Positions 26,060 to 30,250 of a stretch of 63,846 nt of DNA are shown here, one piece after another. Position numbers and translations under genes: made by a program. Each line of letters begins with the position of its first letter. Position 1 is the first letter of the stretch. This stretch comes from Lachnospiraceae bacterium. Its GTDB lineage: Bacteria > Bacillota > Clostridia > Lachnospirales > Lachnospiraceae. The DNA is taken from contig JAFXQR010000156.1 of NCBI GenBank assembly GCA_017526985.1, positions 1 through 63,846 on the forward strand, written 5' to 3'. The notes under the pieces are model-generated. The model was given only the letters and a program-made list of their open reading frames with translations. It was not told the DNA's origin and ran no database searches.

Positions 26060-27004
26060 CTATGCCATAGATGTCAGTGCAGCCTGCTTTTTTAATCGCT
26101 CCTGAACAAGTTTGATAAACTGCTCATTCCCGATCACCTGCAGCATCGGCCCGAAAGACAGGATCTCGATCAGCAGCTCCGTCTCATCGTCTTTGTCATA
26201 AAAGATCTCACAACGGTAGCGGTTATCCTCCAGCCGCACCGTGTTCTTGCGGTAATCGGCAAACTGCAGCATCACACGCTCCATGGCATTGCGCTCGTCT
26301 TTTACGATCAAAGTAACCTTTTCCGGCTCTTTTTCCTTTCGCATCATCCCGTCAACATCTGCCGCGTTCTCACCGATCTCCACCTTCTGCATCCTCGAGA
26401 CACGCAGCGTATGTCTTTGATTGCCGCGCCTGCACAAAAGCCGGTAACAGTCATTCTTGACGGAATATTCCAGATAATAGGGCTGCACCAGCAGTTTTGT
26501 ATTCCGTCCCCGGCGCGCCTGATAAAGGATCCGGAGCATCTGTCCGTTACGGATGGCGCTTAGAATGGTCCGAAAATGCTGCCGGTAGCCCTCCTTTGTA
26601 TAATCATCCCCGTCCGAAAAACGATCAAAGTAATAAAAATCCTGATATGCGAATAATGGCTGTACTTCCTGCAACGATCCCTTCAGTTTTCGAATCTGTT
26701 CTTTCTCCAGAAACAGACTCGCGCGCGGATCCTCCAGTACTGCCTTTAACCACCGCTTCTGCAGGCGGCTTAAGGGCTGTTTCACACCACCTTTGATCCT
26801 GGAATGGTATACGCCGTCTTTTTCTTCAAACAACTCCCATTCGTTTGCCGAGAGTCTGGGCAGCAGAAACAAAAGGCTCTCTCCGAACCCATTCTTCTGT
26901 ACGGTATCCTGCAACAGCTTCTTAGTGATCGGCCCTTTTTTGGATAAAAGCAGGTTCACAATCCCGAAATATCGATTGTAGATTTCCGAAAAAAGCTTTT
27001 CCAT
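26060..27004 (-). CDS. WYL-domain protein (second of a tandem pair)
   Basis: A 314-residue protein with an N-terminal winged-helix-like region (about 1-110), a WYL/Sm-like core (about 140-215, RILYQARRGRNTKLLVQPYYLEYSVKN in two parts, then YRLLCRR where WYL would lie) and a C-terminal WCX-type domain ending near residue 305. WYL domains bind nucleic-acid or nucleotide ligands and control transcription; PafB/PafC are a tandem WYL pair responding to DNA damage. The gene lies 13 bases downstream of the other WYL gene. Both are divergent from the tRNA-like RNA and Ro-like gene, which suggests they regulate it. Confidence 0.85.
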   Translation of the reverse strand: MEKLFSEIYNRYFGIVNLLLSKKGPITKKLLQDTVQKNGFGESLLFLLPRLSANEWELFEEKDGVYHSRIKGGVKQPLSRLQKRWLKAVLEDPRASLFLEKEQIRKLKGSLQEVQPLFAYQDFYYFDRFSDGDDYTKEGYRQHFRTILSAIRNGQMLRILYQARRGRNTKLLVQPYYLEYSVKNDCYRLLCRRGNQRHTLRVSRMQKVEIGENAADVDGMMRKEKEPEKVTLIVKDERNAMERVMLQFADYRKNTVRLEDNRYRCEIFYDKDDETELLIEILSFGPMLQVIGNEQFIKLVQERLKKQAALTSMA

Positions 27005-27017
27005 AATCTATAATTCA

Positions 27018-28313
27018 TTATATCCCATACATATCATACATTTTCTTCAGATCCGAAAGAAAGATCTTTTTCAGGCGTTCATTCTCTTCCGTCAGTTCCT
27101 CGCCATCCGTTCCGTAAATGGTAAGGTCCAAGATCCTGCCGGTAAAACTACGGATCCATGGAAACATCTCCATCGCATCCTTCACAGTTTTTTCATAACG
27201 GAAGGTATCCTGTGCGATGCGCTCCACGCTGCCGCCTTCCCCCTCTCTCAGGAGGCGTTGCGGGATAAACGGTTCGATCTGTTCGTCCGCATAGATCGTG
27301 AGGACCACCTTTTGCAAAGCGCCCTGTCCCGGAACCAACGGGGCAAAGGATACGCCCCAGACCGCTTTTTTCTCTTCCATCAGGCGTTCATATAGCCTCT
27401 GCCGGCGATCTTCCGATTCTTCCACCGACAGAACATTCACTTCTTTGATCTGATCCAGCCGCAGGCATGTAAAATGCGCCGTCTTCCTGCCTTCCATATG
27501 CATACATACAAATCTTCTGCCGCTGCGGGTACTCACAAAGATCTGCAGAGGTAACCCTGTTTTGAGACTTCCCTCCCGCTCCATATTGCGGTTGTTCTGC
27601 ACGCGAAGCTTCACTTTTTTCTTTTCATGAATGGCATCGAGCAAGCTCAGCAGCACTTCATCTTCCAGCGTAAAGGTCGGAAATCCGTGTTTCACGTGAA
27701 AAATCTCATTTTTTTCTTTTTGGCCGGTCAATATCGTATTTCCGACAACACCGAGTGGCTGATCCATCTGAAAGCAGCAGATCAGATCCAAAAGTTCCTC
27801 TGCATACGGCAGTTCGTCAAAACGCAGATCCCTGCTGTAGAAGATGCTCTTGCCTTCTTTCCGGATCTTTAGCAGCCCCTCTTCCGCATATTCATTGCAT
27901 TTGCGGCGCACACTCTGCAGATCCGCTTCGTAAGCATATTCGTCCATCAGCAGATCCGTCAGCTCTGCCGCCGAATATTCCGCATCTTTTTTCTCCAGAA
28001 GTTTCAACAGGCAGAAATGCAGCATCAGATCCTTATCCGTAAAGCTTTTGGTCTGCCATACCCGGAACAACGGGTTTGTATCCAATTTCTTCTGATCGAT
28101 CTGCAGGGAAATATTTTTGGATTTGCCGCCTTCGCTGTAGTCCTCACGAACATAATCCGGCAGCCAGCTCACGATACGCCGGCGTTCATCATCATAAGTG
28201 CGCGCACTCTTTCCCGGGAAATCACTGCGGCTCTTGAAGCCGTACACAAAGAAATCCCGTACATAATCGCGACACTTATCTATGTTTTTGATCAATTCCT
28301 GAAAATCCGACAT
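27018..28313 (-). CDS. WYL-domain protein (first of a tandem pair)
   Basis: A 431-residue protein. The N-terminal 100 residues are Asp/Arg-rich (DYVRDFFVYGFKSRSDFPGK). A winged helix follows at about 105-170 (ELTDLLMDEYAYEADLQSVRR then a Lys/Glu-rich wing), then a WYL-like beta domain (about 230-310, KVKLRVQNNRNMEREGSLK and TGLPLQIFVSTRSGRRFVC) and a WCX-like C-terminus. The canonical Trp-Tyr-Leu triplet is not evident, so it is a divergent member. It starts about 100 bases upstream of, and opposite to, the tRNA-like RNA at 28416. The intergenic space must hold promoters for both directions. Confidence 0.8.
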   Translation of the reverse strand: MSDFQELIKNIDKCRDYVRDFFVYGFKSRSDFPGKSARTYDDERRRIVSWLPDYVREDYSEGGKSKNISLQIDQKKLDTNPLFRVWQTKSFTDKDLMLHFCLLKLLEKKDAEYSAAELTDLLMDEYAYEADLQSVRRKCNEYAEEGLLKIRKEGKSIFYSRDLRFDELPYAEELLDLICCFQMDQPLGVVGNTILTGQKEKNEIFHVKHGFPTFTLEDEVLLSLLDAIHEKKKVKLRVQNNRNMEREGSLKTGLPLQIFVSTRSGRRFVCMHMEGRKTAHFTCLRLDQIKEVNVLSVEESEDRRQRLYERLMEEKKAVWGVSFAPLVPGQGALQKVVLTIYADEQIEPFIPQRLLREGEGGSVERIAQDTFRYEKTVKDAMEMFPWIRSFTGRILDLTIYGTDGEELTEENERLKKIFLSDLKKMYDMYGI

Positions 28314-28356
28314 ACATTGATTCTATCATCTTCGCAGCTTTTTTGAAATGATTATT

Positions 28357-28385
28357 TTGTTGCCGTCTGTTATCTTGTGTATATG
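28357..28385 (+). promoter_or_regulatory. possible promoter of the tRNA-like RNA
   Basis: TTGTTG (28357-28362) and TATATG (28380-28385) are 17 bases apart. Transcription would start about 24 bases before the RNA 5' end. The match is only moderate. Confidence 0.35.
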
Positions 28386-28415
28386 CGATCGATACGAAAT
28401 CCGATCTGCAGTAAC

Positions 28416-28540
28416 GCAGGGTAGCTCAGTTGGTAGAGCACGAAAAAACGGATCCTGAGAATTTATTTATGGTGATCCTAACCGCAAATCATTATGAGCT
28501 TATGACTCCGGTGTCGCCGGTTCGAATCCGGTCCCTGCTA
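28416..28540 (+). ncRNA. tRNA-like RNA with the anticodon arm replaced, candidate Y RNA
   Basis: The 5' end GCAGGG (28416-28421 minus the shared T) pairs with CCCTGC (28533-28538) as a 6-bp acceptor; the seventh pair would be C-T. A perfect D-arm follows at 28424-28439: stem GCTC/GAGC and loop AGTTGGTA with the GG that contacts the T-loop. At 28516-28532 is a perfect T-arm: stem GCCGG/CCGGT and loop TTCGAAT. Between them are about 76 bases instead of the usual roughly 23 of anticodon arm plus variable loop. They include GGATC (28450-28454) pairing with GATCC (28474-28478), and TCAT/ATGA at 28489-28505, but no recognisable anticodon. Bacterial Y RNAs (YrlA) are known to mimic tRNA, and a Ro-like gene follows. 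Confidence 0.75.
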
Positions 28541-28562
28541 CGAAAATTTATTGTGGCACATA

Positions 28563-28614
28563 CAGCATGTATCCTATTGGTTAAAGATCTAATCTTTCCG
28601 GTTCGAATCCGCTG
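28563..28614 (+). ncRNA. second, degenerate tRNA-like element
   Basis: A D-arm-like ATC-CTATTGGTTAAA-GAT hairpin (28571-28588) and a T-arm-like CGG-TTCGAAT-CCG hairpin (28599-28611) are joined by about 10 bases with no anticodon arm. CAGC (28563-28566) can pair with GCTG (28611-28614), sharing one base with the T-stem. The T-loop TTCGAAT and the TTGG of the D-loop are exact tRNA signatures. It lies 23 bases after the first tRNA-like RNA and 110 bases before the Ro-like gene. It may be a separate RNA, part of one longer RNA or a decayed copy. Confidence 0.45.
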
Positions 28615-28724
28615 AAAAAAGGAAGAAGTGTCATGTTAAATTTATGGGACGCTGACAGCAATTATTTTTATCCATTCCAAGGTAAAAGATGTGTCCTGAC
28701 AGTTATAGTAAGGAGGAAACAAAA

Positions 28725-30209
28725 ATGAATTTTGCACAATTATTAAAAAGACAGGCAACCCGCACCCGTACTGAAAACGGTGCCGTTGCTTTGAACACCA
28801 CCGGTGATCGCTGCCTGGACCTTTTCGGCTGCATCGGCGCACTGCGAGAAGCAGAAGATGACCGTATCGAGCGCCTGTTCGCAGATGCCTATAAAGAAGA
28901 TGCATTATTTGCAACCAAACTGGCTTTCTATGGCCGTGATGTACGCGGCGGCTTAGGTGAACGCCGTACATTCCGCATCATGCTGCGCTATATGGCACAG
29001 TATCATCCGGAAGCATTACGCGCCAATCTGGATCTGGTGGGTGTTTATGGCCGTTACGACGATCTCTACGAGCTGACAGGCACACAGCTCGAAAATGAGA
29101 TGTGGGCGGCCATGAAAACCCAGTTTGAAGAGGACCGTAAAAACATGGCAGAAGGTCACGCGATCTCTCTGCTTGCTAAATGGATCAAAACTGCCGATGC
29201 CAGCTCGGAGAAAACCCGTAAACTGGGTATCCTGACTGCGCAGAAACTGGGCTATTCCGTATATGAATTCAAACGGATCGTTCGTCAGATGCGTAAACAT
29301 ATCGGTGTGGTAGAAGGCTTGATGAGCGCCGGCAAATGGGATGAGATCAGCTACAGCGCTGTACCGTCCCGTGCCATGATGATCTATCGTAATGCATTCC
29401 GTCGCCACGACGAAGACCGCTTTACCGCATATGTAGACCGTGCAGTGAAGGGCGAAGAAGTGATCCATTCCGCTACGCTGTATCCGTATGATATCGTGGA
29501 AAAATACCTGTCCTTCTCCTGGAATATCGCCAACGCGAAGATCCCGGCAGAAGAATCAAAGGTATTGGAAGCGCAGTGGCATGCATTGCCGGAGTATGTG
29601 GAAAAGGGCACCAACGCCATCGTTATGGCAGATGTGTCCGGCTCCATGATTGGCCGTCCGATGGCAACCTCCATTGGTCTGGCGCTGTATTTTGCAGAGC
29701 ACAACCGTGGCGCATACCACGATCTGTTTATGACCTTTTCCGGCTCGCCGGAGATCGTTTCCGTAAAGGGCCAGACTCTGCAACAGAAACTGGCATCCAT
29801 CGCAAAAGCGAAATGGGGCATGAATACGGATCTGCACAGTGCGTTTGACCGCATATTGCAACTTGCATTACAAAACCGCGTGCGAAAAGAAGATATGGTA
29901 AAATCCATCATCGTCATCTCGGATATGGAGATCGACCAGTGCGGCAACCGCGACTGGACCTTCTATGACCAGATGCGCGATAAATATCGCAAAAACGGTT
30001 ATGAGATCCCGAATGTGATCTTCTGGAATGTGAACAGCCGGCATGATGTGTTCCACGCAGACAGCCACCGAAAAGGTGTGCAGCTCTGCTCCGGCCAGTC
30101 CGCAGCAGTGTTCAAACAGATGCTGTCCTGCATCGGACTCACTCCGCTGGAAGCCATGAAACAGGTGATCAACAGCGAGCGCTATGAAGCGATCCGCATC
30201 AGTGCATAA
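28725..30209 (+). CDS. Ro60/TROVE-related (DUF2828-like) HEAT-repeat and vWA-domain protein
   Basis: The ATG at 28725 follows AAGGAGG and gives 494 residues. Residues about 30-290 are an all-helical repeat region with signature stretches FYGRDVRGGLGERRTFR and GVYGRYDDLYEL, close to DUF2828 and reminiscent of the TROVE ring. Residues about 295-475 are a von Willebrand A domain with a complete metal site: DVSGS (303-307), Thr368 in MNTDL and Asp400 in ISDMEIDQ. Ro proteins bind Y RNAs and misfolded RNAs and tether exonucleases. The two tRNA-like elements immediately upstream on the same strand, and the divergent WYL pair, support an RNA-binding role, which is inferred. Confidence 0.85.
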   Translation: MNFAQLLKRQATRTRTENGAVALNTTGDRCLDLFGCIGALREAEDDRIERLFADAYKEDALFATKLAFYGRDVRGGLGERRTFRIMLRYMAQYHPEALRANLDLVGVYGRYDDLYELTGTQLENEMWAAMKTQFEEDRKNMAEGHAISLLAKWIKTADASSEKTRKLGILTAQKLGYSVYEFKRIVRQMRKHIGVVEGLMSAGKWDEISYSAVPSRAMMIYRNAFRRHDEDRFTAYVDRAVKGEEVIHSATLYPYDIVEKYLSFSWNIANAKIPAEESKVLEAQWHALPEYVEKGTNAIVMADVSGSMIGRPMATSIGLALYFAEHNRGAYHDLFMTFSGSPEIVSVKGQTLQQKLASIAKAKWGMNTDLHSAFDRILQLALQNRVRKEDMVKSIIVISDMEIDQCGNRDWTFYDQMRDKYRKNGYEIPNVIFWNVNSRHDVFHADSHRKGVQLCSGQSAAVFKQMLSCIGLTPLEAMKQVINSERYEAIRISA

Positions 30210-30218
30210 CAAACAACA

Positions 30219-30250
30219 AAAACCACGGGAAATCGTACCCGTGGTTTTTT
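30219..30250 (+). terminator. terminator of the Ro-like gene
   Basis: AACCACGGG (30221-30229) pairs with CCCGTGGTT (30238-30246) around an 8-base loop, followed by six T in total. It ends the tRNA-like RNA/Ro-like transcription unit. Confidence 0.85.

What the first reader, a model, noticed from the sequence alone, without database searches (positions are those of the whole stretch)
28416..30209. tRNA-mimic RNA with a replaced anticodon arm directly upstream of a Ro60-like protein
The sequence shows an exact tRNA D-arm and T-arm and a 6-bp acceptor stem, but about 76 bases where the anticodon arm and variable loop belong, with no anticodon. It sits 185 bases ahead of a HEAT plus vWA protein with an intact metal site, related to Ro60/DUF2828. 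Bacterial Ro proteins are known to work with Y RNAs whose distal module mimics tRNA (YrlA). As I recall, YrlA is permuted, with its ends forming the Ro-binding stem. Here the ends are in the acceptor stem and the extra arm replaces the anticodon arm, so this would be a different architecture. The CDS is DUF2828-like rather than a textbook Rsr, which may mark a separate lineage of Ro-RNA particles.
Basis: partly seen in the sequence, partly recalled or inferred. Interest (0 to 1): 0.92.

Follow-up and report, generated by a model that had tools for sequence, protein, structure and literature searches.

The report
Ro-like protein with tRNA-mimic RNA array
A gut bacterium, like many bacterial viruses, keeps small RNAs built from pieces of transfer RNA, all bearing the same handle, beside the gene of a protein related to the human autoantigen Ro60; they may work as tRNA look-alikes, for example as decoys, and a very similar handle occurs in an unexplained RNA class of social amoebas.

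Summary
Window 28415-28540 is a tRNA-shaped RNA with a foreign hairpin in its anticodon arm; a covariance model built without it and its near kin scores it 81.8 bits, the next place in its genome 45.9. It is one of three RNAs before the gene that share a handle: a 6-bp stem, unpaired ACAGCAA, and UG after the 3' strand. The handle recurs beside DUF2828/Ro-like genes in Lachnospiraceae and in phages of ten host genera (three read by eye). Searching viral contigs for the handle alone found 50 contigs, 45 with a DUF2828 gene; scrambling the motif or mismatching the stem gave none. Handles carry tRNA pieces: tRNA bodies (interrupted, or circularly permuted like YrlA), T arms, or anticodon stem-loops (Lys-UUU, Asn-GUU commonest). 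Most likely the Ro-like protein binds the handle and displays tRNA mimics; decoying tRNA-cutting nucleases is my preferred, unproven role, autoregulation by the leader handle another. The anticodon arm is split rather than absent, so splicing is a rival. The handle resembles dictyostelid class I RNA, reported as unique to social amoebas. Ten paper searches found no description.

The parts
28331..28353 (+). conserved upstream element TTCGCAGCTTTTTTGAAATGATT, possible promoter or operator
   Evidence: pattern found at -394 in the window and upstream in 9 kin loci; function inferred
28415..28540 (+). type ii RNA: tRNA body with a handle hairpin inserted in the anticodon arm
   Evidence: Rfam tRNA 38.5 bits; held-out model R1 81.8 bits
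28415..28421 (+). acceptor stem 5' strand (pairs with 28533-28539; 6 bp and one C-U mismatch)
   Evidence: sequence; alignment
28424..28439 (+). D arm GCTC AGTTGGTA GAGC
   Evidence: sequence; D stem 96.4% paired over 48 RNAs and not used to select them
28441..28442 (+). first two bases (27-28) of the anticodon stem, 5' strand
   Evidence: reading; pairing test on 50 relatives
28450..28457 (+). handle strand B GGATCCTG
28472..28487 (+). handle strand A GTGATCC, then TA and the conserved unpaired ACCGCAA (usually ACAGCA in relatives)
28496..28510 (+). rest of the anticodon arm: GAG, loop CTTATGA, CTCCG
   Evidence: reading; family test
28516..28532 (+). T arm GCCGG TTCGAAT CCGGT
28553..28635 (+). 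type i RNA: handle stem GTGGCAC/GTGTCATG with ACAGCAT, enclosing a T-arm-like piece
   Evidence: module scan; handle RNAs with T-arm payloads upstream of the gene in kin L053, L054, L056, L057
28646..28698 (+). type i handle GGGACGC-TG-ACAGCAA ... GTGTCCTG just before the ribosome-binding site; possible autoregulatory leader element
   Evidence: ends 26 nt before the start codon
28725..30209 (+). DUF2828/DUF7788 Ro-like protein, 494 aa, helical domain plus vWA with an intact MIDAS
   Evidence: Pfam; MIDAS residues invariant in 36 of 36; profile match to TROVE; model pLDDT 90.6
30218..30249 (+). terminator-like hairpin closing the unit
   Evidence: 12 pairs, T-rich tail

Best explanation
The locus encodes a Ro-type ribonucleoprotein of its own lineage. 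A DUF2828 vWA protein is co-encoded with several small RNAs that share one handle (6-bp stem, unpaired NNACAGCAA after its 5' strand, UG after its 3' strand). I infer that the handle is the protein's binding site. The rest of each RNA is in many cases a piece of tRNA: type ii, a tRNA body whose anticodon stem is interrupted by a capped handle; type i, the handle as closing stem, often around an anticodon stem-loop and/or T arm; type iii, the handle closing a circularly permuted tRNA body. Shown by sequence and statistics: the handle, its covariation, the tRNA pieces, the genetic linkage, and that handle class and protein descend together. Inferred: binding. Inferred with less certainty: the RNP displays tRNA arms, above all anticodon loops of Lys-UUU and Asn-GUU type, so that enzymes acting on tRNA (anticodon nucleases in phage-host conflict are my first guess) meet decoys or baits on the Ro-like protein. 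Also inferred: the handle next to the ribosome-binding site lets the protein limit its own synthesis.
For: Unbiased pairing test: in 57 nonredundant upstream regions ACAGCAA occurs 115 times on the gene's strand and 3 times on the other; 110 of 133 ACAGCA sites have a perfect 6-bp partner followed by TG, against 3.5 (maximum 9) with shuffled letters and 18 (maximum 28) with stems swapped between sites; 53 of 55 full-length regions carry a handle. RNA-first search of viral contigs: 51 stretches on 50 contigs, Ro-like gene on the same strand in held DNA for 35 of 51 and DUF2828 elsewhere in the record for 11 of the other 16, so 45 of 50 contigs (some are near-duplicates of each other), against 676 of 50,697 phage records overall. 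Database controls: scrambled motif 0, mismatched stem 0, compensatory stem 6 stretches, 5 of those 6 with the gene. Covariation: 48 RNAs, 23 pairs, 21 with changes on both sides, 98.7% paired against 39-49% when slid; acceptor, T and handle stems were used to select the rows, the D stem was not. The type ii scan finds 67 (duplicates included) against 0 in reversed and 0 in Markov-resampled DNA. Payloads: 246 nonredundant type i; a best hairpin of at least 5 bp with a 7-nt loop, U33 and R37 in 85, against 6.8 shuffled (maximum 11); T arms 36 against 0.14. Co-descent: handle class changes 4 times on the protein tree of 100 nonredundant loci against 33 when shuffled, minimum 24. Autoregulation: of 58 loci with a handle in the last 400 nt, 25 have it ending within 30 nt of the start codon; in Vibrio phage phi-Grn1 it overlaps the start codon (by eye). 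Protein: TROVE profile match, probability 94.9, E 4.3e-8 for one comparison, over the vWA half. Hughes et al. [quoted passage not shown]
Against: No binding, transcription or nuclease data. 115 of 246 type i payloads show neither an anticodon-like hairpin nor a T arm by the criteria. The window lies in ordinary chromosome, not in a prophage as far as its ten tested neighbours show, where a phage decoy role is less obvious. One genome (G131) has a 104.9-bit type ii RNA before a nicotinamidase-like gene, with no Ro-like gene found. Near kin L058 has the gene but no handle in 600 nt upstream (likewise L059, L061, L064). Co-descent of linked RNA and gene is expected from linkage alone.
Confidence: 0.55

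Rival explanations
1. Y-RNA-like gating: the RNAs act as YrlA and other Y RNAs are thought to (recalled; for Deinococcus Rsr and PNPase also in a passage of PMC7790460), covering the Ro-like protein and tethering it to a nuclease or repair enzyme by tRNA mimicry; the anticodon loops are only part of the mimicry.
For: Same overall logic: Ro-like protein, tRNA-like domain, permuted type iii RNAs with the handle at the ends. RtcB, an RNA ligase and tRNAs lie near the gene in Listeria phage LMTA-34; two RtcB genes in the window's genome.
Against: Does not explain why many RNAs carry isolated anticodon loops of different identities. The YrlA model gives no more than tandem true tRNAs give.
Confidence: 0.25
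2. Interrupted tRNA genes: the handle is an intron-like insert removed by cutting and RtcB or RNA ligase, giving a working tRNA; type ii would be precursors.
For: The anticodon stem is restored 5/5 across the insert in 31 of 50 (mean 9.6, maximum 15 permuted), often with U33-type loops; ligases nearby in Listeria phage LMTA-34; the own genome has two RtcB genes.
Against: The same handle sits on type i RNAs that lack an acceptor stem and on permuted type iii RNAs. 19 of 50 type ii do not restore a full stem. No tRNA splicing endonuclease is known in bacteria (recalled).
Confidence: 0.12
3. The handle binds another protein or is a processing signal, and the Ro-like gene is only a neighbour.
For: Dictyostelid class I RNA, with a similar handle, directly binds the RRM protein Rnp1A (PMC7919456, passages and section 15). 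Orphan RNA in G131.
Against: Linkage over very distant phages, 45 of 50 contigs; handle next to or over the start codon.
Confidence: 0.1
4. Decayed tRNA genes or chance folds.
For: Single-sequence folding is hardly better than shuffles for 4 of 6 RNAs folded.
Against: Covariation over 48 RNAs, held-out score, database controls.
Confidence: 0.01

Closest known systems
YrlA, bacterial Y-RNA-like RNA (Rfam RF02553) with Rsr/Ro60
   Same: Small RNA with tRNA mimicry encoded beside a Ro-type protein; type iii RNAs here have the T arm, acceptor, D arm order of the YrlA model (alignment).
   Different: Type ii is the opposite permutation; arrays of several RNAs; many payloads are anticodon arms; YrlA model scores far below its threshold (21.7 against 69). 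The Ro-binding sequence of YrlA was not compared: the papers are not held, recalled only.
Dictyostelid class I RNA (Rfam RF01414)
   Same: About 60 nt, 6-bp stem joining the ends with compensatory changes, conserved motif next to the 5' strand (UUACAGCAA in the Rfam consensus), ends AAG...CUGU, variable middle (PMC7919456 passages; consensus). In nine phage genomes 12 of the 24 hits listed down to E 0.912 fall in Ro loci covering 8.7% of the DNA; 11 of the 12 overlap a handle, the twelfth (L101:3583) shows the motif only.
   Different: Eukaryote; the binding protein shown is the RRM protein Rnp1A; no tRNA pieces in the passages read. None of the phage hits passes the gathering score of 41.5 and the same lax search rings in 8 of 14 control genomes. 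The paper states that the class is unique to dictyostelids (section 14).
Ro60/Rsr (TROVE) proteins
   Same: Helical domain plus vWA with MIDAS; profile match over residues 201-484. A jumbo-phage review already notes ROT/TROVE proteins in some phages and a tRNA-like partner in cellular organisms (PMC7824862, passage).
   Different: Pfam calls DUF2828/DUF7788, not TROVE; no TROVE match in the genome, which is 92% complete.
Phage tRNAs and RNA repair enzymes against anticodon nucleases
   Same: Same neighbourhood in Listeria LMTA-34 (tRNA array, RtcB, RNA ligase) and Enterococcus H1 (tRNA array).
   Different: Those are real tRNAs or repair enzymes; these RNAs are mimics fused to a handle.

Membership tests
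tRNA | acceptor, D and T arms | tested here: met
tRNA | continuous anticodon arm with 7-nt loop | tested here: not met
   interrupted by the handle; pairing restored only across the insert (for relatives, by eye for the window); ARAGORN negative
tRNA | aminoacylation and use in translation | not testable with these tools
   no experiment
YrlA (RF02553) | Rfam model at gathering score | tested here: not met
   no hit in window 28380-28730 up to E 1; Faith1 RNA 21.7 against 69; tandem tRNAs score alike
YrlA (RF02553) | permuted tRNA-like domain closed by the Ro-binding stem | tested here: not met
   window RNA is not permuted; type iii relatives are
YrlA (RF02553) | gene beside a Ro-type protein | tested here: met
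Dictyostelid class I RNA (RF01414) | 6-bp terminal stem plus conserved unpaired motif, short 3' tail | tested here: met
   type i RNAs
Dictyostelid class I RNA (RF01414) | Rfam model at gathering score 41.5 | tested here: not met
   best 23.1 bits in 16 phage records; no hit in window 28380-28730 up to E 1
Dictyostelid class I RNA (RF01414) | binds Rnp1A; DUSE promoter | not testable with these tools
   eukaryotic features
Ro60/TROVE protein | Pfam TROVE match | tested here: not met
Ro60/TROVE protein | HEAT ring plus vWA fold | tested here: inconclusive
   confident, mostly helical N-terminal part and vWA-like alternation, profile match to the C-terminal half only; fold search not obtained
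Ro60/TROVE protein | MIDAS residues DxSxS...T...D | tested here: met
   D303 S305 S307 T368 D400 in 36 of 36
Ro60/TROVE protein | binds Y RNA | not testable with these tools
   no experiment

The most novel reading that the evidence does not exclude
The handle is one ancient RNP module shared by phages, bacteria and social amoebas: DUF2828 Ro-like proteins bind a common RNA handle onto which tRNA fragments are grafted in any permutation, and dictyostelid class I RNAs, held to be unique to social amoebas and without known mechanism, are the eukaryotic branch of it. In phages the grafted anticodon loops form a decoy library against tRNA-cutting defences.
Probability: 0.35. Interest if true: 0.95.

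Novelty: new variant of a known kind. Interest (0 to 1): 0.87.

Why it matters
It gives widespread but unexplained phage genes (Ro-like proteins in Felixounavirus, Listeria, Staphylococcus, Campylobacter and Mycobacterium phages) a candidate RNA partner and a testable binding site, and makes the purpose of tRNA mimicry in Ro RNPs testable through anticodon loops of stated identity. It also offers a first lead on a possible partner and origin of dictyostelid class I RNAs.

Tried and rejected
YrlA membership through Rfam: rejected, since two neighbouring true tRNAs give the same scores. Single-sequence folding as evidence: mostly uninformative (of the six RNAs folded only L033 stands out, z -2.49). 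A self-cleaving ribozyme, suggested by the permutations: considered and set aside because class I RNAs are reported as RNAs holding both strands of the stem; not tested. Handle near canonical TROVE genes: only a few chance-like matches in six loci. Sequence search of solved structures gave one significant hit (8s05, 'Conserved protein', over the vWA half) and no Ro60. A sigma-70 scan found no promoter on the + strand. Paper searches found no description of these RNAs; the library holds only open-licence papers. Chen 2014 and Sim 2020 on bacterial Y RNAs are not held and are recalled or known from reference lists.

Rows dropped and limits: of 56 type ii scan hits, 3 with a misassigned acceptor were dropped by acceptor sequence and 3 as redundant (50 left); 3 more were left out of A1 (L052, L111:1622, L117:6661), giving 47 plus the window. 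Model R1 was built from 44. In one search I searched 49 of the loci then held. The scans (150 of 660 candidates; 12 candidates a genome) scored only part of the first-look candidates. In one search eight of the ten genomes having both RNA and gene had supplied training rows for R1, so only the window, G033 and G131 are independent there. In one search some T loops were counted as anticodon loops; one search masks them. The loose scan also gave 0 to 5 hits on the opposite strand per phage locus (5 in Faith1, whose four plus-strand hits in that scan are chance). Handles ending in AG or UAG (Mycobacterium, Synechococcus and Vibrio phages) were read by eye and are not in the counts; one search admitted AG and GG endings.
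Full report
What is there. Window 28415-28540 is a tRNA-shaped RNA found by Rfam's tRNA model (38.5 bits) but not by ARAGORN. It has acceptor, D and T arms and an extra hairpin where the anticodon stem should be continuous. Two more RNAs follow at 28553-28635 and 28646-28698, then a 494-aa gene at 28725-30209 and a terminator-like hairpin at 30218-30249. The neighbouring genes tested are ordinary chromosomal ones (glycosidases, WYL regulators, rubrerythrin, GGDEF), not phage genes. The nearest named records are uncultured Lachnospiraceae.

The handle. Reading upstream regions of relatives showed one recurrent element: strand A of six bases, two free bases, ACAGCAA, and elsewhere a complementary strand B followed by UG. 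Without requiring pairing, 115 ACAGCAA lie on the gene's strand and 3 on the other in 57 nonredundant upstream regions; 110 of 133 ACAGCA sites have a perfect partner, against a mean of 3.5 after shuffling the strand letters and 18 after swapping strands between sites, the latter being high because stems resemble each other. 53 of 55 full regions carry it; L058 and L092 do not by this strict rule, though L092 has a 96-bit type ii RNA. The same element lies within about 3 kb of the gene in phages FADO, LMTA-34, JH2, SEP9, H1, NCTC12673 and phiM12 and in two faecal contigs (that loose scan also gives 0 to 5 hits on the opposite strand). Variants ending in AG or UAG, read by eye, occur in Faith1, B23 and phi-Grn1.

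RNA-first test. Two patterns holding only the handle, searched in 2.9 million viral contigs, gave 9 and 42 stretches, on 50 contigs, some of them near-duplicates. In 35 of 51 the DNA held encodes a Ro-like protein, always on the same strand; of the other 16, 11 have DUF2828 elsewhere in the record and five do not (three of these five are fragments under 10 kb). That is 45 of 50 contigs, against 676 of 50,697 phage records. Scrambling ACAGCAA gave 0 stretches, mismatching the stem 0, changing both stem strands together 6, 5 of them with the gene.

The tRNA pieces. A scan for the window's type (type ii) found 67 places, duplicates included, in 2.47 million bases counting both strands, against 0 in reversed and 0 in Markov-resampled sequence. 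RNAalifold on 48 RNAs recovers acceptor, D, T and handle helices, 21 of 23 pairs with double changes; 98.7% of cells pair against 39-49% when slid. Because acceptor, T and handle stems served for selection, the independent helix is the D stem (96.4%). A model built without the window and three near kin gives the window 81.8 bits, the next place in its genome 45.9, and 86.8 bits to the 110-nt 'tRNA-Undet' annotated in Synechococcus phage B23 shortly after its Ro-like gene. Over 299 genomes of the family 11 have a hit at E up to 1e-9 and 10 of these have the gene within 1 kb downstream of at least one such RNA, on the same strand (32 of 299 have the gene at E up to 1e-3); eight of the ten supplied training rows. 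G131 is an exception: a 104.9-bit RNA before a nicotinamidase-like gene (name by eye) and no Ro-like gene found.

The anticodon arm is split. In 50 nonredundant type ii RNAs the stem pairs 5/5 across the insert in 31, against a mean of 9.6 and maximum of 15 when 5' sides are permuted. Loops are often canonical, for example Asp GUC, Thr UGU, Pro UGG, Ser UGA, Phe GAA. So type ii looks like a tRNA with a side handle. Type i RNAs (246 nonredundant) have the handle as closing stem; in 85 the best hairpin has at least 5 bp and a 7-nt loop with U33 and a purine at 37 (6.8 shuffled, maximum 11), 7-nt loops occur in 131 payloads against 59-73 for loops of 5, 6, 8 or 9 nt, and among 122 such loops with stems of at least 4 bp anticodons UUU (22) and GUU (15) lead. 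T arms occur in 36 against 0.14. 115 of 246 show neither. Type iii RNAs close a circularly permuted tRNA body (T arm, acceptor 3', short loop, acceptor 5', D arm): 22 raw hits against 0 reversed, some of them duplicates or doubtful; clear ones are L101, L102, L104, L106, L125, L138, L155 and L163.

The protein. Pfam gives DUF2828 and DUF7788; no TROVE match in the genome. A profile of 36 relatives matches four TROVE proteins from the phylum with probability 94.9, E 4.3e-8, over residues 201-484. MIDAS residues are invariant in 36 of 36. An AlphaFold2 model has pLDDT 90.6 and pTM 0.90, mostly helical N-terminal part then alternating strands and helices. The fold search could not be run. The handle's closing-pair class (CA/CC against CT) changes 4 times on the protein tree of 100 loci against 33.2 when shuffled, minimum 24; linkage alone would give some of this. 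Overproduction of the Ro-like protein of mycobacteriophage LeBron is reported to be toxic (PMC13148394, passages).

Mechanism. Association, strand, position and co-descent make the Ro-like protein the likely reader of the handle; this is inference. In 25 of 58 loci the last handle ends within 30 nt of the start codon and in phi-Grn1 it spans it, which suggests autoregulation. What the displayed tRNA pieces do is open. I prefer decoys or baits for tRNA-acting enzymes: type i RNAs lacking an acceptor cannot serve translation, their anticodon loops are diverse and canonical, the loci lie among phage tRNAs and in LMTA-34 beside RNA repair genes, tRNA-Lys is the PrrC target (PMC13191261, passages), and Hughes et al. 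(PMC7790460, passages) raise competitive inhibition for YrlA, while noting that YrlA fragments were not detected. Against: chromosomal setting of the window, and no nuclease tested.

Comparison with the known. YrlA is the nearest in logic; its Rfam model does not claim these RNAs, and sub-threshold scores are matched by tandem tRNAs. A jumbo-phage review mentions ROT/TROVE proteins in phages with a tRNA-like partner known from cells (PMC7824862, passage), without these RNAs in the passage seen. Unexpectedly, the Rfam model of dictyostelid class I RNA picks out the handles: in nine named phage genomes 12 of 24 listed hits (E up to 0.912) lie in the Ro loci, which cover 8.7% of the DNA, all on the gene's strand, 11 with ACAGCA; 11 of the 12 overlap a handle and one (L101:3583) shows the motif only. 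None reaches the gathering score, and at the lax limit the same search rings in 8 of 14 control genomes. Kjellin et al. 2021 (PMC7919456; abstract, passages, sections 14 and 15) describe a 6-bp terminal stem with compensatory changes, a conserved 11-nt motif, AAG and CUGU ends and a variable middle, and state that the class is unique to dictyostelids. The likeness may be common descent or convergence; a short motif cannot decide.

Verdict. Observation confirmed, interpretation partly supported and enlarged: an RNA family not matched by Rfam apart from its tRNA parts, widespread and tied to DUF2828 Ro-like proteins, with tRNA mimicry in three permutations. Function remains inferred.

Noticed in passing
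L179:6091-6206 (genome G131): Type ii RNA of 104.9 bits before a nicotinamidase-like gene and apparent NAD salvage genes (names by eye), in a genome without a detectable DUF2828 gene.
   Followed up: partly
L108:5940-5982: In Vibrio phage phi-Grn1 the handle encloses the ribosome-binding site and overlaps the start codon of the Ro-like gene.
   Followed up: partly
L109:7869-7978: A 'tRNA-Undet' annotated in Synechococcus phage B23 is a type ii RNA (86.8 bits).
   Followed up: yes
window 26060-28313: Two genes on the minus strand just upstream, diverging from the RNA unit; one has a WYL domain. A conserved element at 28331-28353 lies between them and the RNA unit.
   Followed up: partly
L103:5655-12554: Listeria phage LMTA-34: handles, Ro-like gene, tRNA splicing ligase and RNA ligase in one stretch beside a tRNA array.
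   Followed up: no
L058, L059, L061, L064 upstream of the gene: A group of Ro-like genes 67-68% identical to the window's has no handle directly upstream.
   Followed up: partly
L102:5425-5794: The unannotated gap after the Ro-like gene of Mycobacterium phage Faith1 holds three handle RNAs ending in AG, one a permuted tRNA.
   Followed up: yes
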